DNA from: Thiobacillus sp.
Lineage (GTDB): Bacteria; Pseudomonadota; Gammaproteobacteria; Burkholderiales; Thiobacillaceae
Assembly (NCBI GenBank): GCA_024708885.1
Contig: JANJXT010000026.1
Location: 1 to 64,000 of the forward strand
Reading direction: 5' to 3'
Length of the DNA: 64,000 nt
Each line of letters begins with the position of its first letter. Position 1 is the first letter of the stretch. Below the pieces are notes generated by a model, which saw nothing but the letters and a program-made list of their open reading frames with translations, was not told the DNA's origin and made no database searches. A program made the translations under genes and the position numbers. This document shows, piece after piece, positions 53,671 through 64,000 of this stretch.

Positions 53671-54258
53671 ATGAGTGCAAAGAAGGGATGGTGGTCCCGG
53701 CTGCGTTCGCCGACCGCCAAGTATTCCGTCCTGACCCTGCTGGGCGGCGGCTTCATCGCCGGCATCCTGTTCTGGGGCGGGTTCAACACCGGCATGGAAG
53801 CCACCAACACCCTGGAATTCTGCGTGTCGTGCCACGAGATGCGCGACAACGTCTACCAGGAATACAAGCAGACGATCCACTATTCGAACCGCACCGGCGT
53901 GCGTGCCGTGTGCTCGGACTGCCACGTCCCCAAGGACTGGACCCACAAGATCATCCGCAAGGTGCAGGCCAGCAAGGAAGTGTACGGCAAGCTGATGGGC
54001 ACCATTGCCACCAAGGAAAAATTCGAGGCCAAGCGCCTGCAGCTTGCACGCAACGAGTGGAAACGCATGAAGGCGTCGGACTCGCGCGAGTGCCGCAATT
54101 GCCACAGCTTCGACGGCATGAACACCGAGGCGCAGAAGACGCGTGCCAAGAAACAGCACGAGATGGCAGTCGAGGACAAGATGACCTGCATCGACTGCCA
54201 CAAGGGTATCGCGCACACGAAACCGGCGGACATGACCGAAGAGGACGAGGAGATCTGA
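53671..54258 (+). CDS. nirT: Tetraheme quinol dehydrogenase NirT (NapC family)
   Basis: This 195-residue membrane-anchored cytochrome takes electrons from quinol to periplasmic carriers. One N-terminal helix (YSVLTLLGGGFIAGILFW, about 18-35) precedes four CxxCH hemes: CVSCH (51-55), CSDCH, CRNCH and CIDCH. The NapC/NirT hallmark GMEATNTLEFCVSCHEM is present. It lies 63 bases after nirS. It is the likely entry point for electrons to the NirS system. Confidence 0.95.
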   Translation: MSAKKGWWSRLRSPTAKYSVLTLLGGGFIAGILFWGGFNTGMEATNTLEFCVSCHEMRDNVYQEYKQTIHYSNRTGVRAVCSDCHVPKDWTHKIIRKVQASKEVYGKLMGTIATKEKFEAKRLQLARNEWKRMKASDSRECRNCHSFDGMNTEAQKTRAKKQHEMAVEDKMTCIDCHKGIAHTKPADMTEEDEEI

Positions 54259-54310
54259 GCGCCGGCTCGCAGCATTCGACACGCTTTCCATCGACTCAAG
54301 GAGATTCAGC

Positions 54311-55219
54311 ATGAACAAGGCAGTACTCGGCATTTCGGCACTCGGGCTCGCGCTTGCGGCGAGCACCGGTACGGCGTTCGCCGCCCCCGACTGGAACAAG
54401 GTGCCCGCGCGCAAGGTGACCGTGTTCTATCCAGGCGCGTCCAACATCGAGTGGGTCATGAACGGCACCCAGCACGGCGGCGCCAGGGGCCTGAAAAAGG
54501 GCGAGACGTGCATCGCCTGTCACGAGGACGAGAAGACCCGCAACGTCGACATCGCGTCCGACAAGATCCTCAAGGGCGAGAAACTTGAACCCAAGCCGGT
54601 TGCCGGGCGCGTGCCGAGCATTCCGGTAACGGTGCAGGCCGCCAACGACGGCGCGAACCTCTATCTGCGTTTCAGCTGGAAGGATGCCGGTGGCGGCGCC
54701 GAGAAGATGGACAAGGACAACCCGATCAAGCTCGCGGTCATGCTGGAGGACAACAAGGTCGTCGCCAAGGACACGCGCGGCGCGACCGTGCAGATCGGGC
54801 GCGCCGGCGGCTGCTGGGGCACCTGTCACGCGGATGCGCGCACCATGCCGGGCGCGGCCGACACGAAGACCAAGTACGTCAGCGGCGCCTCGCTCGCGTC
54901 CGGCAACTACTACGACCTCATGCAGTGGCAGAGCGGCAAGGGCGGCAAGGGTGTCGACGGCCATGTCGCCGACAAGCGCGTGATGGAAGGCGGCAAGGCA
55001 CTGGTGAAAGCCGAAGGCAAGAAGGAAGGCGACACCTGGGTGGTGACCTTCACCCGCAAGCTTGCCGGCGGGGAGGGCGACATCGCGCTGGCGTCGGGCA
55101 AGTCGTACAACATGGGTTTTGCCATCCACAACGACCACGCTGCGGGCCGCTTCCATCACGTGTCGTTCGGCTACAGCCTCGGCATCGACACCAAGGCCGA
55201 CATCAGCGCGGCGAAGTGA
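54311..55219 (+). CDS. nirB: NirB-like periplasmic diheme cytochrome c-552
   Basis: This 302-residue protein has a signal peptide (cleavage after TAFA, residue 24). One canonical heme site is CIACH at 67-71. A second apparent site at 168-173 is CWGTCH, that is C-x3-CH with three intervening residues. The second part (from about 85) resembles the ethylbenzene-dehydrogenase-type heme-binding fold. NirT-NirB pairs are known beside nirS in Pseudomonas stutzeri, where NirB is a diheme c-552. The name is given by that order and size. Confidence 0.78.
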   Translation: MNKAVLGISALGLALAASTGTAFAAPDWNKVPARKVTVFYPGASNIEWVMNGTQHGGARGLKKGETCIACHEDEKTRNVDIASDKILKGEKLEPKPVAGRVPSIPVTVQAANDGANLYLRFSWKDAGGGAEKMDKDNPIKLAVMLEDNKVVAKDTRGATVQIGRAGGCWGTCHADARTMPGAADTKTKYVSGASLASGNYYDLMQWQSGKGGKGVDGHVADKRVMEGGKALVKAEGKKEGDTWVVTFTRKLAGGEGDIALASGKSYNMGFAIHNDHAAGRFHHVSFGYSLGIDTKADISAAK

Positions 55220-55238
55220 GCCATCGGGAGACGCGGCA

Positions 55239-55604
55239 ATGAACGGCGGCGGGTGCGTTTCGGGACCAGAGCGGCTGCGGCGGACGGCAGCCGTGCTGTT
55301 CGCCGCCTGCGCGGCCATGGCGCCGCTCGCCGCTCCGGCCGCAGACAGCGGGAGCGAGGTGGCGATCAAAAGCATGCGTTTCGACCCGCCGGTCTTGAGA
55401 ATCAAGGCGGGGACCGAGGTCATCTGGGTCAACCGCGAGAAACGCACCAATCACTCGGTCCTCTTCGAACAGGAAAACGAGCTGGAATCCGACCGCCTTT
55501 TTCCCGGCGAAACCTGGCGCCGCACGTTCGAGCGGCCCGGCAGCTACCCGTACCGTTGCGGCCCGCACCCGGACATGCGCGGCCTGATTGAAGTGATCGA
55601 ATGA
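55239..55604 (+). CDS. Amicyanin/pseudoazurin-like cupredoxin
   Basis: This 121-residue protein has a signal peptide (AAVLFAACAAMAPLAAPAA) and then a plastocyanin-type fold. The type 1 copper ligands are a histidine in KRTNHSVLFE and C, H and M in YRCGPHPDMRGL, like the amicyanin pattern. It would carry electrons in the periplasm, possibly to NirS. A cupredoxin is not a usual member of the nir operon. It begins 19 bases after the NirB-like gene and overlaps nirC (ATGA). Confidence 0.88.
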   Translation: MNGGGCVSGPERLRRTAAVLFAACAAMAPLAAPAADSGSEVAIKSMRFDPPVLRIKAGTEVIWVNREKRTNHSVLFEQENELESDRLFPGETWRRTFERPGSYPYRCGPHPDMRGLIEVIE

Positions 55605-55921
55605 AGCGATGCCGACACTCATGGTTTGCGATCGTGCTCGTGATTCCCTGCGTCGCGCTGGCGGCGGGACCGGACACGGCGCGGCAGGGGGAGATCACCC
55701 ATCTGGTCCGCCAGGATTGCGGCTCCTGTCATGGCTTGACGCTGGCCGGCGGGCTGGGCCTGCCGCTGCACCCGGAAGCGCTGCGCGACAAGCCGAAGGA
55801 AAGTCTGGTCGCGACCATCCTGTTCGGCCGGCCGGGCACCGCCATGCCGCCGTGGGCGCCCTTCCTCAGCGAAACGGAGGCCGAGTGGATCGTCGACATG
55901 CTGTTGCAGGGGAAATTCTGA
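55601..55921 (+). CDS. nirC: Monoheme cytochrome c NirC
   Basis: This 106-residue small periplasmic cytochrome has a signal peptide, CGSCH at about residues 40-44 and a methionine ligand in GRPGTAMPPWAPFLSE. The size and position match NirC (c55), which can reduce NirS or serve heme d1 maturation. It overlaps the cupredoxin and NirF genes. Confidence 0.92.
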   Translation: MKRCRHSWFAIVLVIPCVALAAGPDTARQGEITHLVRQDCGSCHGLTLAGGLGLPLHPEALRDKPKESLVATILFGRPGTAMPPWAPFLSETEAEWIVDMLLQGKF

Positions 55922-57093
55922 TGCGCGGCTGGGTTCCCTTTCTTGCGTTCCTGCTGCTGGTGCTGCAAGGCTGCGCGCAGGCGCCGCTGCGCGGCACGGG
56001 CGATCTCGGCGTGGTGATCGAGCGCGCCGCCGGCAGTGTGGAAATCGTCGAGACCAGCGGCCGCACGGTGCTGGCGCGCGTCACGGGACTGGGCGACCTG
56101 TCGCACGCCTCGCTGAATTTCTCGCGCGACGCCCGCTACGCCTATGTATTCGGCCGCGACGGCGGCCTGACGCAGGTCGACCTGCTGCAGCAGAAGCTTG
56201 TGCGCCGCACCCTGCAGGCGGGCAACAGCATCGGCGGCGCGATTTCGCAGGACGGACGGCTGCTCGCGGTCGCCAATTACGCGCCGGGCGGCGTGAAGGT
56301 GTTCGACGCCGCCACGCTCGAACTGCTCGCCGACATCCCGGCGGTGGACGACGCGGGCAAACCGTCCAAGGTCATCGGCCTGGTTGATGCGGCCGGCAAC
56401 CGCTTCGTCTGGAGCCTGTTTGAGGCGGGGGAAATCTGGGTTGGCGATTTCCGCGATCCGCGCCGGCCGCAGCTGCGCAAGTTCAGGAACGTCGGCAAGG
56501 AACCCTACGACGCCATGGTCACCGCCGACGGCCGCCACTATCTTGCCGGCCTGTTCGGCGAGGACGGTCTGGCGATGCTCGACCTGTGGAACCTCGACGC
56601 CGGCGTCACGCGGGTGCTCGATGGCTATGGCCGCGGCGAAGAGAAGCTGCCCGTCTACAAGATGCCGCACCTGGAAGGCTGGGCGGCGACCGGCACCGAA
56701 CTGCTGGTGCCGGCGGTCGGCCGGCACGAGGTGCTGGTGGTCGACCAGGGCAACTGGAAGGAGGCCGGCCGCATCGCGGTGCACGGCCAGCCGGTGTTCG
56801 TGGTGGCGCGTCCGGACAATCGCCAGGTGTGGGTGAACTTCGCCTTTCCGCACAACGACACGGTGCAGGTCATCGACGTGCCGAGCCGTCGGGTCGTGCA
56901 CACCTTCAAGCCGGGCCGCGGTGTGCTGCACATCGAATTCACGCCGCGCGGCGAGCACGCCTGGCTGTCGGCGCGCGACGACAACAAGGTGCTGGTCTAC
57001 GACAGCGAAACCTTCGCCCTCGTCGGAGAACTGCCCGCCGACAGCCCGAGCGGCATCTTCTTCACCCATCGCGCACACCGGACCGGACTATGA
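55921..57093 (+). CDS. nirF: Heme d1 biosynthesis protein NirF
   Basis: This 390-residue lipoprotein has lipobox LQGC (Cys18), so it sits at the periplasmic membrane face. It has the d1 propeller fold without a cytochrome c domain. The histidine known to matter for d1 or precursor binding lines up with His62 in LSHASLNFSRDARYAYVFGR. It probably takes part in a late step from precorrin-derived intermediates. It starts at a TGATG overlap with nirC. Confidence 0.95.
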   Translation: MRGWVPFLAFLLLVLQGCAQAPLRGTGDLGVVIERAAGSVEIVETSGRTVLARVTGLGDLSHASLNFSRDARYAYVFGRDGGLTQVDLLQQKLVRRTLQAGNSIGGAISQDGRLLAVANYAPGGVKVFDAATLELLADIPAVDDAGKPSKVIGLVDAAGNRFVWSLFEAGEIWVGDFRDPRRPQLRKFRNVGKEPYDAMVTADGRHYLAGLFGEDGLAMLDLWNLDAGVTRVLDGYGRGEEKLPVYKMPHLEGWAATGTELLVPAVGRHEVLVVDQGNWKEAGRIAVHGQPVFVVARPDNRQVWVNFAFPHNDTVQVIDVPSRRVVHTFKPGRGVLHIEFTPRGEHAWLSARDDNKVLVYDSETFALVGELPADSPSGIFFTHRAHRTGL

Positions 57094-59039: not shown

Positions 59040-60191
59040 ATGTTCAGAATTTCCCAATACATGCAGGAAATCGCCCAGCCCACGCCGCTGGGCCCCGTGC
59101 GCAACCCGCCCGGCCCGGTGGTGATCTGGAACCTGATCCGGCGCTGCAACCTCACCTGCAAGCACTGCTATTCGATTTCCGCCGACAAGGATTTCCCGGG
59201 CGAGCTCTCCACCGGCGAAGTCAACGCCGTGATGGACGATCTCAAGCGCTTTCGCGTGCCGGTGCTGATCCTCTCCGGCGGCGAGCCGCTCTTGCGTCCC
59301 GATATTTTCGACATCGCCGCGCGCGCCAAGGCGATGGGCTTCTACGTCGGCCTGTCGTCCAACGGCACGCTGATCGACGAGGGCAACATCGACCGTATCG
59401 CCGCGGTCGGCTTCGATTACGTCGGCGTGAGCCTCGACGGCATCGCGCAGACGCACGACACCTTCCGCCGCATGAGCGGCGCCTTCGACAGGTCCATGCA
59501 CGGCATCCGCCTGTGCAAGGCGCGCGACATCAAGGTCGGCATCCGCTTCACCCTCACCCAGGACAACGCCCACGACCTGCCGGCGCTGCTGCAACTGCTG
59601 GAGGACGAGGAACTCGACAAGTTCTACCTGTCGCATCTGAATTACGCCGGACGCGGCAACCGCAACCGCAAGACCGACGCCTTTCACCGCACCACGCGGC
59701 AGGCGATGGACCTGCTGTTCGACACCTGCTGGCGCGCGCAGCAGGCGGGCCGTCCCAAGGAGTTCGTCACCGGCAACAACGATGCCGACGGCGTGTATCT
59801 GCTGTTGTGGGTGCGCGAGCATTTTCCGCATCTCGAAGCGCACATGCGGGCGAAGCTCGAACAGTGGGGCGGCAATTCGAGCGGGGTCAACGTCGCCAAC
59901 ATCGACAACCTGGGCAACGTGCATCCCGATACCATGTGGTGGAATCACACGCTCGGCAACGTGCGCGAGCGGCCCTTCTCCGAAATCTGGATGGATACCG
60001 CCGATCCCATCATGGCCGGCCTCAAGGCGCGTCCGCGCACGGTCGGCGGCCGCTGCGGCGCCTGTGCGCATTTCGCCATCTGCGGCGGCAACACCCGGGT
60101 GCGCGCCTGGCAGGTGAGCGGCGATCCGTGGGCGGAGGATCCGGCGTGCTATCTCAGCGACGAGGAGATCGGCATTGAAGTCCATGCGTAA
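59040..60191 (+). CDS. nirJ: Radical SAM heme d1 synthase NirJ
   Basis: This 383-residue enzyme removes propionate side chains from didecarboxysiroheme. The radical SAM cluster ligands are CNLTCKHC (about 38-45), followed by SGGEPLLRPDIF. The C-terminal auxiliary cluster cysteines are in GRCGACAHFAICGGNTR and DPACYLSDEE. The length and the opening MFRISQYMQEIAQPTPLGPV match NirJ. It overlaps nirN by 17 bases. Confidence 0.96.
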   Translation: MFRISQYMQEIAQPTPLGPVRNPPGPVVIWNLIRRCNLTCKHCYSISADKDFPGELSTGEVNAVMDDLKRFRVPVLILSGGEPLLRPDIFDIAARAKAMGFYVGLSSNGTLIDEGNIDRIAAVGFDYVGVSLDGIAQTHDTFRRMSGAFDRSMHGIRLCKARDIKVGIRFTLTQDNAHDLPALLQLLEDEELDKFYLSHLNYAGRGNRNRKTDAFHRTTRQAMDLLFDTCWRAQQAGRPKEFVTGNNDADGVYLLLWVREHFPHLEAHMRAKLEQWGGNSSGVNVANIDNLGNVHPDTMWWNHTLGNVRERPFSEIWMDTADPIMAGLKARPRTVGGRCGACAHFAICGGNTRVRAWQVSGDPWAEDPACYLSDEEIGIEVHA

Positions 60192-61677
60192 AGTCCTGGC
60201 GGGTCTTGCCCTGCTGGCAGCGAGCGGCGCGGCCGCAGCGGATGCCGCGCCCGAGGTCGAGCAACGCTACGCCGAACACTGCGCCAGTTGCCACGGCGCC
60301 GAGCGGCTCGGCGGCATCGGCCCGGCGCTGCTGCCGGAAAATCTCGCGCGCCTGCGGCGTCCCGAGGCGATCCGGACGATCGCCAGCGGACGCGTAGCCA
60401 GTCAGATGGCGGGCTTTTCCGACAAACTCACGCCGGCGGAGATCGAGGCGCTCGCCGATTTCATCTACACGCCGCTGGCGCAGGCGCCGGTGTGGGGGAA
60501 AAAGGAAATCGAGGCCACGCGCGTGCGCCACGTGCCGTCGGCGAAGCTGCCGGCGCGCCCCGTGTTCAAGGCCGATCCGCACAATCTCTTCGTCGTCGTC
60601 GAATTGGGCGACCACCACGCCACCATCCTCGACGGCGACCGCTTCGAGCCGATCCATCGTTTCGCCACGCGCTTCGCCCTGCACGGCGGACCCAAGTTCT
60701 CACCCACCGGGCGCTTCGTCTACTTCGCCTCGCGCGACGGCTGGATCAGCAAGTTCGACCTCTACAGCCTGAAGACCGTGGCCGAGGTGCGCGCCGGGCT
60801 CAACACGCGCAACCTCGCGGTGTCGGGCGACGGCAGGACGCTCCTGGTCGGCAACTACCTGCCGCACAGCCTGGTGCTGCTCGACGCCGCCGACCTGCGC
60901 GTCATCAAGGTCGTCCCCACGGTCGGGCAGGACGGCACGTCGTCGCGCGTGTCCGCCGTGTACCAGGCCGAGCCGCGCGGCAGCTTCGTCGCCGCGCTGA
61001 AGGATACGAAGGAAGTGTGGGAGATCGACTACACCCGGCGCGATTTCCCGCTGCGCCGCATCGCGGTCGACGACTATCTCGACGACTTCTTTTTCGACCA
61101 GTCCTACAAGCTGCTTATCGGCAGCGCGCGCGACAGCCACAAGGGGCAGGTGCTCGATCTCGATTCCGGCCGCAAGATCGCCGAGCTCGATCTTCCCGGC
61201 ATGCCGCATCTCGGCTCCGGCATCACCTGGGACTATCAGGGGCACCCGGTGATGGCCACGCCCAACATGAAGGCGGGCGTGGTGAGCGTGATCGACATGC
61301 AGACCTGGCAGACGGTGAAGGCAATCAAGACGCTCGGCCCCGGTTTCTTCATGCGCAGCCACGAGAACACGCGCTACGCCTGGACCGATGGTTTCGCCAC
61401 CGGCGACCCGGCGAGCCGCGACGTCATGCACCTCATCGACAAGGACACGCTCGAAGTCGCGCACGTGCTGCGTCCGGAGCCCGGCAAGACCGCGGCCCAC
61501 GTCGAATTCACCCGCGACGGCAAGTACGCGCTGGTGAGCATCTGGGAGAACGACGGCGCGCTGGTGATCTACGATGCCGACACGCTGCAGGAGGTCAAGC
61601 GCATCCCGATGAAGAAGCCCTCCGGCAAGTACAACGTGTACAACAAGATCACGCGCTCCGCCGGCACCAGCCACTGA
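60175..61677 (+). CDS. nirN: Dihydro-heme d1 dehydrogenase NirN
   Basis: This 500-residue NirS-like protein completes heme d1 by oxidising a propionate side chain. It has a signal peptide, CASCH at about 36-40 and the d1 propeller. The proximal histidine lines up in RFALHGGPKFSPTGRF (about 170), with others in MPHLGSGITW and MRSHENTRYAW. The start may be TTG at 60175, 7 bases after a GAGGAG, or ATG at 60184; the first has the better spacing. Confidence 0.94.
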   Translation: MKSMRKVLAGLALLAASGAAAADAAPEVEQRYAEHCASCHGAERLGGIGPALLPENLARLRRPEAIRTIASGRVASQMAGFSDKLTPAEIEALADFIYTPLAQAPVWGKKEIEATRVRHVPSAKLPARPVFKADPHNLFVVVELGDHHATILDGDRFEPIHRFATRFALHGGPKFSPTGRFVYFASRDGWISKFDLYSLKTVAEVRAGLNTRNLAVSGDGRTLLVGNYLPHSLVLLDAADLRVIKVVPTVGQDGTSSRVSAVYQAEPRGSFVAALKDTKEVWEIDYTRRDFPLRRIAVDDYLDDFFFDQSYKLLIGSARDSHKGQVLDLDSGRKIAELDLPGMPHLGSGITWDYQGHPVMATPNMKAGVVSVIDMQTWQTVKAIKTLGPGFFMRSHENTRYAWTDGFATGDPASRDVMHLIDKDTLEVAHVLRPEPGKTAAHVEFTRDGKYALVSIWENDGALVIYDADTLQEVKRIPMKKPSGKYNVYNKITRSAGTSH

Positions 61678-61691
61678 GGCGCGCCTTGACG

Positions 61692-62987
61692 ATGAGGCGG
61701 GCAGGGCGGGACGGCATCGGCCGGGCGGCGCTGGCGCTGGTCCTGGCGGCGTGGATCGCGGCCGCGCGGGCCGGCGCTGGCGTGCCGGCAGTGCCCGGCG
61801 ACGACGCTGCCATTCGTGCCTCGCACGTCGTGCACGCGACACCGGAGGGCATGCCGGCCGACGCCGCGGACCTGCGCACGCGCGTACTGCTGGTGGACCC
61901 GGACGAGCGCCATCTCAGCCTGCTCGACGGCGAAACGTATGCGCCCCTGCGGCGCATCGCCCTCGACCCTGCGCTCGCGGGCGCGCCGCCGGTGTCGCCG
62001 GATGGCCGCTTCGCGTTCCTCGCCACGCGCGACGGCAGGGTGCGCAAACTCGACCTCCTCACCCTGCGCAGCGTGGCCGAAATCCGCGTCGGCAGCGCAT
62101 TGCACAGCGTGGCGCTGTCCGGCGACGGCCGCGTGCTGATGGCCGGCAACGCCGCCCCGCACACCCTTGTTGCACTGGACGCGCGCGATCTCGCGCTCAT
62201 CCGCCGCATTGCCGTGCGCAACAAGGATGGGATCACCTCGCGCGTCGCCCGCGTCGTCGATGCCACGCCGCGGCAAAGCTTCATCGCCACGTTCAGCGAC
62301 ATCCCCGAGGCGTGGGAGATGTCCTGGGAGGCGAATCCGCAACCGGTCTACGAAGGCCTGGTGCACGACTTCAAGCTGCGCGAGGGGCACATCGTCGAAG
62401 GGCCGTTCGCCCCGCGCCGCAGCCGCCTCGACCTGCCCATCGCGGACTTCTTCTTCGAGCCGTCCTTCGAGCACATGCTCGGCGTGCCGCCCGACGGCGC
62501 GACCGCGCATGTCGTGCATCTCGACGTGCGTCGCGCGATTCGGCGCACGCCGCTCCCCGGCCGTCCGCACGCCGGCGGTGGCGCGGCCTGGGAACGCGCC
62601 GGACGCCCCGTGCTCGCGCTGCCGAACTGCGCGGAGGGCGTGGTCAGCGTTCTCGATCGCGCTACCTGGCAGGTGGTGCGACACGTTGCTGTCGATGCGC
62701 CGGGGTGCGCGCTCGCCCATCACGACGCCAGTCCCTACGTCTGGCTGGGCGGCTTCGACGGCGCCTTGCGCGGCTGCTTCGTCGTCATCGACAAGGCGAC
62801 GCTCGAAGCGGCCGGCCGCGTCTGTCCGCAGCCCGGCGCCGTGGCCGCACGCCTCGTCTTCAGCCGCGACGGCCGGCATGCGCTGGCAAGCGTCGGCAGC
62901 ACGCTCGTCGTCTACGACAGCGCCACGCTGCGCGAAGTGAAACGCGTGCCGCTGCAAGCCGCTTCGCTCGCTGAACCCGATATCTGA
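61692..62987 (+). CDS. NirN-like d1-propeller protein without cytochrome c domain
   Basis: This 431-residue protein has a signal peptide-like N-terminus (AALALVLAAWIAAARAGAG) and then a propeller that aligns with NirN but without the CxxCH domain. At the place of the NirN proximal histidine it has alanine (Ala96 in PALAGAPPVSPDGRF). Pocket histidines further on are kept (RPHAGGGAAWE and LAHHDASPYVW). It starts 14 bases after nirN and probably comes from its duplication. It could bind or pass on heme d1, or be a non-catalytic partner. The precise function is unknown. Confidence 0.88.
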   Translation: MRRAGRDGIGRAALALVLAAWIAAARAGAGVPAVPGDDAAIRASHVVHATPEGMPADAADLRTRVLLVDPDERHLSLLDGETYAPLRRIALDPALAGAPPVSPDGRFAFLATRDGRVRKLDLLTLRSVAEIRVGSALHSVALSGDGRVLMAGNAAPHTLVALDARDLALIRRIAVRNKDGITSRVARVVDATPRQSFIATFSDIPEAWEMSWEANPQPVYEGLVHDFKLREGHIVEGPFAPRRSRLDLPIADFFFEPSFEHMLGVPPDGATAHVVHLDVRRAIRRTPLPGRPHAGGGAAWERAGRPVLALPNCAEGVVSVLDRATWQVVRHVAVDAPGCALAHHDASPYVWLGGFDGALRGCFVVIDKATLEAAGRVCPQPGAVAARLVFSRDGRHALASVGSTLVVYDSATLREVKRVPLQAASLAEPDI

Positions 62988-63050
62988 TCCCCGCTGGCGG
63001 AGCGCCCCCGGTTTGCGGCAGACTTGCAGCTTGCCTCCTGGACCTCCAAC

Positions 63051-64000
63051 ATGAACGAACTCGCCCCCTACGCCGCACAGTCCGCCACGAGCCGCGGCCG
63101 CCTGCACGCCGAGCCCTCCGCCGCCCCGCGCTCCGAATTCCAGCGCGACCGCGATCGCATCGTCCATTCCGCCGCGTTCCGCCGCCTGGAATACAAGACC
63201 CAGGTGTTCGTCAACCATGAAGGCGATCTCTTCCGCACGCGGCTGACCCACAGCCTCGAAGTCGCGCAGATCGGCCGCACCATTGCGCGCCTGCTGCATC
63301 TCAACGAGGATCTCGTCGAAGCCGTCGCGCTCGCGCACGACCTTGGCCACACCCCCTTCGGCCACGCCGGGCAGGATGCATTGAATGCCTGCATGCGCGA
63401 GCACGGCGGCTTCGAGCACAACCTGCAGTCGCTGCGCGTGGTCGACCTGCTGGAAGAACGCTACGCCGACTTCGACGGGCTCAATCTCAGCTTCGAGGCG
63501 CGCGAAGGCATCCTCAAGCACTGCTCGCTCGCCAACGCGGAAAAGCTCGGCGAGGTCGGGCGGCGCTTTCTCGACAAGCGGCAGCCCTCGCTGGAAGCGC
63601 AGGTGGCCAACCTCGCCGACGAAATCGCCTACAACAACCACGACGTCGACGACGGTCTGCGCTCCGGGCTCATCAACCTGGAACAGCTCATGGACGTACC
63701 GATTTTCGCGCGCCATCGCGAAGAGGTGTGTGCGCGCCATCCCGCGCTGCACGGCCGGCGCGTCGTCACCGAGACCGTGCGCCGCATCATCAACACCCTC
63801 GTCATCGACCTCGTCGACACCACGCGTGCCGACATCGAGCGCGCCGGCGTTGCACACATCGACGACGTCCGCAACGCGCCGCCGCTTGCCGCGTTCAGCC
63901 CCGCCCTGCTGGAGGAGCACCGCGAACTCAAACGCTTCCTGCTGCGCCACCTGTATCGACACTACAAGGTCGCGCGCATGAGCGCCAAGGCCAGCCGCAT
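63051..64000 (+). CDS. dgt: dGTPase-like HD-domain protein, cut by the window edge
   Basis: The first 316 codons are visible and open at the right edge. The HD metal motif is in [15 protein letters not shown], preceded by [39 protein letters not shown] and [18 protein letters not shown] are family signatures. It hydrolyses dNTPs to deoxynucleosides and triphosphate. The gap to the nir operon is 63 bases, so it may be transcribed with it or from its own promoter. Confidence 0.93.

What the first reader, a model, noticed from the sequence alone, without database searches (positions are those of the whole stretch)
61692..62987. A second NirN-like protein lacks both the c-heme domain and the proximal d1-heme histidine
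The protein aligns without gaps to NirN over the strand before the SPxGRF turn. NirS ([10 protein letters not shown]), NirN (ALHGGPKFS) and NirF (LSHASLNFS) all have histidine there; this one has alanine (ALAGAPPVS). Later pocket histidines are kept and a signal peptide is present. It may be a d1 chaperone, a d1-sensing protein or a binding partner of NirN. I know of no described function for such a form.
Basis: partly seen in the sequence, partly recalled or inferred. Interest (0 to 1): 0.78.

Follow-up and report, generated by a model that had tools for sequence, protein, structure and literature searches.

The report
Dead NirN copy in denitrification operon
Next to the gene for an enzyme that finishes the heme d1 cofactor of denitrifying bacteria, a few Thiobacillus carry a second copy that has lost the enzyme's working parts yet is still held in shape by selection, so it probably has a non-catalytic job.

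Summary
Window 61692-62987 encodes an intact 431-residue NirN paralog with a probable signal peptide, 14 bases behind nirN in a Thiobacillus nir operon. It has no c-heme domain. The proximal-ligand position, His in 83/83 NirN, 14/14 NirF and 14/14 NirS compared, is A, A, T, A in the four orthologs. 'Later pocket histidines are kept' is half right: the His323 and His374 equivalents remain in 4/4, but the His417 equivalent is Arg in 4/4 and the C-terminal strand with the Tyr461 equivalent is gone. It should not work as the known dehydrogenase. Orthologs occur in 4 of 56 genomes of the genus, always between nirN and an HD-domain (dGTPase-like) gene; three relatives with nearly the same operon and the same flanks lack it. 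It evolves fast but under purifying selection (dN/dS 0.27-0.38; nirN 0.08-0.15). Closest fold: NirN. I read it as a pseudoenzyme, most likely a partner in the periplasmic NirF-NirN-NirS maturation complex; that role is inferred. No second NirN-type copy appeared in other genomes of two wider samples.

The parts
61692..62987 (+). nirN2: NirN paralog, 431 aa, d1-type beta-propeller only, no c-heme domain
   Evidence: (Cytochrom_D1, 1.3e-54)
61692..61775 (+). probable Sec signal peptide (about residues 1-28)
   Evidence: sequence read directly; helix 7-27 in the model; cleavage site inferred, no signal-peptide program run
61977..61979 (+). Ala96 codon, at the place of the proximal d1 ligand (His147 equivalent)
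   Evidence: A, A, T, A in four orthologs; His in 83/83 NirN
62349..62414 (+). 22-residue loop (Y220-P241), absent from the neighbouring NirN, present in most NirN sampled; among the most conserved parts of NirN2
   Evidence: 74 of 82 NirN in that sample carry it
62568..62570 (+). His293, equivalent of distal His323: kept 4/4
62721..62723 (+). His344, equivalent of His374: kept 4/4
62850..62852 (+). Arg387, at the place of His417: Arg 4/4
62952..62987 (+). C-terminal end where the PSGKYNVYNK strand of NirN (Tyr461 equivalent; probably the inner strand of the closing blade) is missing
   Evidence: model has no strand after residue 420, pLDDT below 50 at 424-431
62628..62708 (+). Cys313 to Cys339 (first to last codon): present together in 3 of 4 orthologs, absent together in L038; possible disulfide
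   Evidence: pairing inferred
62775..62825 (+). Cys362 to Cys378 (first to last codon): present in 4/4, not the usual residues in NirN; possible disulfide across strands c and d
   Evidence: pairing inferred
60175..61677 (+). nirN: full-length NirN with c-heme domain, without the 22-residue loop (listed from TTG; an ATG lies 9 bases in)
55918..57093 (+). nirF
55601..55921 (+). nirC (c-type cytochrome, CGSCH)
   Evidence: Cytochrome_CBB3, 1.2e-11; name by position and class
59040..60191 (+). nirJ
   Evidence: TIGR04051, 655.8 bits
51790..53607 (+). nirS ORF (the true start probably lies further in)
63051..64000 (+). HD-domain phosphohydrolase gene that follows nirN2 (I call it dGTPase-like from recall); flank used for synteny, runs off the window
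   Evidence: HD 5.6e-15, HD_assoc 2.1e-6

Best explanation
nirN2 encodes a secreted, catalytically dead paralog (pseudoenzyme) of the dihydro-heme d1 dehydrogenase NirN. Shown: it has the NirN propeller fold in a confident model but has lost the c-heme domain (no electron outlet of its own), the proximal iron ligand, the His417 and Tyr461 equivalents and the C-terminal strand, and four related genomes carry it, under purifying selection, in the same place in the nir operon. Inferred: it is exported with NirF, NirC, NirN and NirS, and works through its protein surfaces as an accessory of the transient NirF-NirN-NirS complex, helping hold substrate donor (NirF), dehydrogenase (NirN) or acceptor (semi-apo NirS) together, rather than by chemistry on d1. 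Its surface loop Y220-P241, which the co-resident NirN lacks, and the new cysteine pairs are the most likely specialised parts.
For: Residue losses are uniform: proximal His is A/A/T/A, His417 equivalent Arg 4/4, Tyr461 equivalent absent 4/4. No CxxCH in 4/4. A complete NirN with all these residues sits just upstream, so nirN2 does not replace it. dN/dS is 0.27-0.38 over six pairs, bootstrap upper bounds 0.36-0.49, and 0.20-0.33 from codon 61 on. Four orthologs in the same gene order. Model pLDDT 88; best fold match NirN, TM 0.80. The window of codons 211-240, which holds most of the loop, has mean pN 0.05, second lowest of 15 windows after 151-180 (0.04). Paper PMC3694632 (abstract and passages) reports a transient NirS-NirN-NirF complex, a known assembly to which it could belong.
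Against: No interaction, expression or phenotype data. The gene is absent from most relatives, including three with nearly the same operon, so the role is dispensable or very local. Pair by pair dN/dS is 2.4-3.4 times that of nirN (nirC of the same operon also reaches 0.32), and GC at codon positions 1+2 is 62.5-65.5% against 54.2-55.4% in nirN, as relaxed constraint would give. The distal His and the Arg of RDG are kept, so some tetrapyrrole binding is not excluded. Losses are not significantly concentrated in the inner-strand segments once the missing tail is left out (Fisher p 0.27; with it 0.02; segments drawn by me after seeing the alignment).
Confidence: 0.5

Rival explanations
1. Tetrapyrrole carrier or sensor: NirN2 still binds heme d1, dihydro-heme d1 or an earlier intermediate, with iron held only from the distal side by His293 (or His344), and hands it on to NirN or NirS.
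For: His293 and His344 kept 4/4, Arg113 of RDG kept 4/4; PMC13168839 (passages) leaves the carriage of the intermediate across the membrane unexplained.
Against: Proximal His, His417 and Tyr461 equivalents, the Arg two before His344 and the C-terminal strand are all gone; all eight inner-strand segments are altered.
Confidence: 0.2
2. Fading relic: an extra NirN, perhaps acquired from another lineage, that lost its function and is drifting, with residual constraint only on folding or on not harming the cell.
For: Raised dN/dS, GC-rich codon positions 1+2, stem branch of 1.89 changes per site; patchy presence, 4 of 56 genus genomes.
Against: No stop or frameshift in four orthologs at dS up to 0.68; dN/dS well below 1; near-invariant stretches (141-173, 215-247); new cysteines shared or lost as pairs.
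Confidence: 0.22
3. New ligand or metal site: the propeller was reused for another ligand, for example around the NirN2 histidines 233, 273 and 276.
For: These His are invariant in 4/4 and not the main residue in NirN (at 276, 15 of 82 NirN also have His).
Against: Four sequences only; no geometry available from the model output; no known site of this kind.
Confidence: 0.06
4. An active dehydrogenase that uses NirC or the c domain of NirN as electron outlet.
For: NirC is in the operon; [quoted passage not shown]
Against: The proximal ligand and both residues placed beside the reacting propionate (recalled from the NirN structure paper) are missing in 4/4.
Confidence: 0.02

Closest known systems
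NirN, dihydro-heme d1 dehydrogenase (Pseudomonas aeruginosa, PDB 6RTD/6RTE)
   Same: Best sequence match among solved structures (E 5.2e-76) and best fold match (TM 0.80, 38% identity); Cytochrom_D1 propeller; His323 and His374 equivalents kept
   Different: No c-heme domain; no His147, His417 or Tyr461 equivalent; C-terminal strand missing; 22-residue extra loop that the 6rtd sequence lacks; new cysteines
NirF (6TV2/6TV9)
   Same: Single-domain d1-type propeller of the periplasm
   Different: 23% identical in the fold alignment; NirF keeps the proximal and His417-type histidines in 14/14; NirN2 groups inside NirN, not NirF
NirS, cytochrome cd1 nitrite reductase
   Same: d1-type propeller fold
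   Different: 17-20% identity in the fold alignments; NirS has the proximal His (14/14) and a c-heme domain
Pseudoenzyme paralogs in general (recalled)
   Same: Duplicate that lost catalytic residues but is kept under selection next to the active enzyme
   Different: None described for the d1 propeller family in the search listings seen (open-licence library only)

Membership tests
NirN | d1-type eight-bladed propeller of NirN descent | tested here: met
   but the C-terminal strand, probably the inner strand of the closing blade, is missing
NirN | N-terminal cytochrome c domain with CxxCH | tested here: not met
   no CxxCH in 4/4 proteins and only about 35 residues between signal peptide and propeller
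NirN | proximal iron ligand, His147 equivalent | tested here: not met
   A, A, T, A against H in 83/83 NirN
NirN | His417 and Tyr461 equivalents near the reacting propionate | tested here: not met
   Arg 4/4 and absent 4/4; residue numbers recalled, consistent with a constant offset of 34 in 6rtd
NirN | distal His323 equivalent | tested here: met
   H293 in 4/4
NirN | dihydro-heme d1 dehydrogenase activity | not testable with these tools
   needs purified protein
NirF | groups with NirF and keeps the two histidines invariant in NirF (147- and 417-type) | tested here: not met
NirF | lipoprotein signal (lipobox Cys), as in P. aeruginosa NirF | tested here: not met
   first Cys of NirN2 is residue 313; NirF of the same operon has LLVLQGC

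The most novel reading that the evidence does not exclude
NirN2 is the first pseudoenzyme of the heme d1 propeller family: a dedicated, non-redox partner that acts on the NirF-NirN-NirS hand-over of d1 in one Thiobacillus lineage, supplying in trans the 22-residue loop that the co-resident NirN lacks.
Probability: 0.2. Interest if true: 0.65.

Novelty: new variant of a known kind. Interest (0 to 1): 0.45.

Why it matters
How heme d1 is passed between NirF, NirN and NirS is still unclear (PMC3694632, passages seen, proposes only a working model). A paralog whose chemistry is gone but which selection still constrains offers a way to separate binding and hand-over from catalysis. Close relatives with and without the gene, in nearly the same operon, make a natural comparison.

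Tried and rejected
Tandem duplication of the neighbouring nirN: disfavoured for the four adjacent NirN by AU test (p 0.015), but a grouping with all eight loop-less NirN of the tree was not rejected (p 0.21). The groups were named after the tree had been seen. The free tree groups NirN2 with five loop-bearing NirN of other families (96/93), with a long stem of 1.89 and unusual letter make-up, so the donor is uncertain.

Sequencing error or frameshift hiding the C-terminal strand: rejected, since all four orthologs end at about the same place.

A different histidine at the proximal place: rejected.

Pocket-specific loss as a statistical claim: not upheld without the tail.

Co-evolution of the co-resident NirN: 40 fixed differences between the four NirN beside NirN2 and the three without it, only one at a column at least 90% conserved; nothing telling.

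Plasmid collection: 21 records, all under 60% identity, 20 listed. I took them as ordinary NirN; I looked at the annotated neighbourhood of one only. Promoter and terminator scan 61500-63300: none found. Rfam at gathering score: none.

Limits. One search compared the window's nirN with the others one codon out of register, so its nirN values that involve the window are not used; one search is. One search ended in an error after writing the alignment that read; its length filter (over 330 aligned residues) dropped the partial NirN of L025. The 83 NirN of that alignment are distinct but were fetched by similarity to NirN2 and are not a random sample; genomes for which no locus was given are not in it. 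and one search used 82 (the window's own nirN, held as L004, left out), one search used 83. In some searches only four candidates per genome were scored and matches above 1e-30 are not listed.

Full report
What is there. The window lies in contig C48 of a 2.56 Mb genome, 84% complete. The operon runs nirS, a NapC/NirT-type cytochrome, an ethylbenzene-dehydrogenase-type heme protein, a cupredoxin, nirC, nirF, the siroheme decarboxylase genes, nirJ, nirN, and then the gene in question. A Cytochrom_D1 search of the genome gives five matches, which are NirS, NirN, NirF and this protein in two pieces. The ORF at 61692-62987 is intact and starts 14 bases behind the nirN stop.

Checking the residues. 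P. aeruginosa NirN (6rtd) is the best solved relative (E 5.2e-76). Counting in the printed alignments puts the histidines of ALHGG, MPHLG, RSHAD and GHVEF at chain positions 181, 357, 408 and 451, and the tyrosine of SGKYN at 495. Minus 34 these are 147, 323, 374, 417 and 461. That His147 is the proximal ligand, His323 the distal one, and His417 and Tyr461 sit beside the reacting propionate is recalled from the NirN structure paper (J Mol Biol 2019), of which I saw nothing but its reference; the constant offset supports the recall. PMC7278500 (passages) states that His182 of NirS is the fifth iron ligand and that the corresponding histidine of NirN and NirF rotates to coordinate the iron. In NirN2 these positions read: 147, A/A/T/A; 323, H 4/4; 374, H 4/4; 417, R 4/4; 461, absent 4/4 (the alignment sets Pro there). 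The 83 NirN compared all have H, H, H, H, Y. Of 133 columns at least 95% conserved in 82 NirN, NirN2 keeps 64 in all four, has lost 43 in all four, and is mixed at 26.

Structure. The AlphaFold model from a 42-row alignment of window and locus proteins has mean pLDDT 88 and pTM 0.84. Best match is NirN (TM 0.80, rmsd 2.4-2.5), then NirS and NirF. Reading the strands in order, seven blades have an inner strand a and strands b-d. The first three strands (65-90) need an inner strand from elsewhere, which in NirN would be the C-terminal PSGKYNVYNK segment. NirN2 has no such strand. By the same reading the loop 220-241 lies on the face away from the d1 pocket and the four cysteines on the pocket face.

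Distribution. In the genus, 21 of 56 genomes, the window's included, have a NirN-type match at 1e-30. Seven have a loop-less NirN (sequences), and four of these seven also have NirN2. The 14 others gave one NirN-type match each and no NirN2. The three loop-less genomes without NirN2 (G006, G035, G037) have nearly the same operon between aroB and the HD-domain gene, with nirN directly before the latter. In 399 genomes of the order 85, and in 398 of the phylum 50, have a match at 1e-30; the window's genome is in both counts and is the only one with a second NirN-type protein in either. The two draws overlap, did not include the other three carriers, and scored four candidates per genome. A scan of genome contigs returned three loci, the same three orthologs. 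The 21 plasmid matches are all under 60% identity.

Evolution. The four NirN2 form one clade (100/100) with a stem of 1.89 changes per site, grouped with five loop-bearing NirN of other families (96/93) rather than with the neighbouring NirN. An AU test rejects grouping with the four adjacent NirN (p 0.015) but not with all eight loop-less NirN (p 0.21). The 22-residue loop, present in 74 of 82 NirN of my sample and absent from the neighbour, also speaks for an origin outside the adjacent gene. Pairwise dN/dS is 0.27-0.38 for NirN2 against 0.08-0.15 for NirN, 0.09-0.14 for NirF, 0.07-0.10 for NirJ, 0.07-0.15 for the HD-domain gene and 0.06-0.32 for NirC. Bootstrap 95% upper bounds for NirN2 are 0.36-0.49. 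So the gene is constrained, but less than nirN, nirF and nirJ. GC at codon positions 1+2 is high (62.5-65.5% against 54.2-55.4% in nirN), so GC-driven relaxation is part of the story.

Function. Loss of c-heme, proximal ligand, His417 and Tyr461 equivalents rules out, in my judgement, the known dehydrogenase reaction. [quoted passage not shown] PMC13168839 (abstract, outline and passages) assigns the preceding step to NirF and NirC and places these and NirN in the periplasm. A secreted NirN-shaped protein without chemistry, in the same operon, most simply acts in that assembly. This last step is inference. The carrier and relic readings remain open.

Literature. Searches for NirN with paralog, NirN-like, heme d1 with pseudoenzyme, NirN with His323, Thiobacillus with nirN, and cytochrome D1 domain/NirN/duplication showed, in their listings, no description of such a protein. 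I did not open the listed papers for this. The library holds open-licence papers only.

Noticed in passing
loop at window 62349-62414; NirN at 60175-61677: NirN comes in two forms, with and without a 22-residue loop; 8 of 82 in my sample lack it, among them the NirN beside three NirN2 orthologs; the window's own NirN, not in that count, lacks it too.
   Followed up: partly
window 53671-55604: Between nirS and nirC lie a NapC/NirT-type cytochrome, an ethylbenzene-dehydrogenase-type heme protein (PF09459) and a cupredoxin (PF00127); the block is shared by L036-L041 and L047, except that L041 gave no match to the cupredoxin.
   Followed up: partly
L038 11242-11496: Two 95-base copies of a hairpin-forming repeat sit between the NirN2 ortholog and the HD-domain gene; none at the same place in the window.
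   Followed up: no
L039 7425-8103 and L041 7766-8433: About 670 bases between nirH and nirJ in two genomes with loop-less NirN, but about 70 in L040.
   Followed up: no
window 55918-55980: NirF has a lipobox-like LLVLQGC, in line with the lipid-anchored NirF reported for P. aeruginosa (PMC13168839, passages).
   Followed up: no
window 61692-62987, residues 233, 273, 276: Histidines invariant in NirN2 but not usual in NirN; a possible new site.
   Followed up: no
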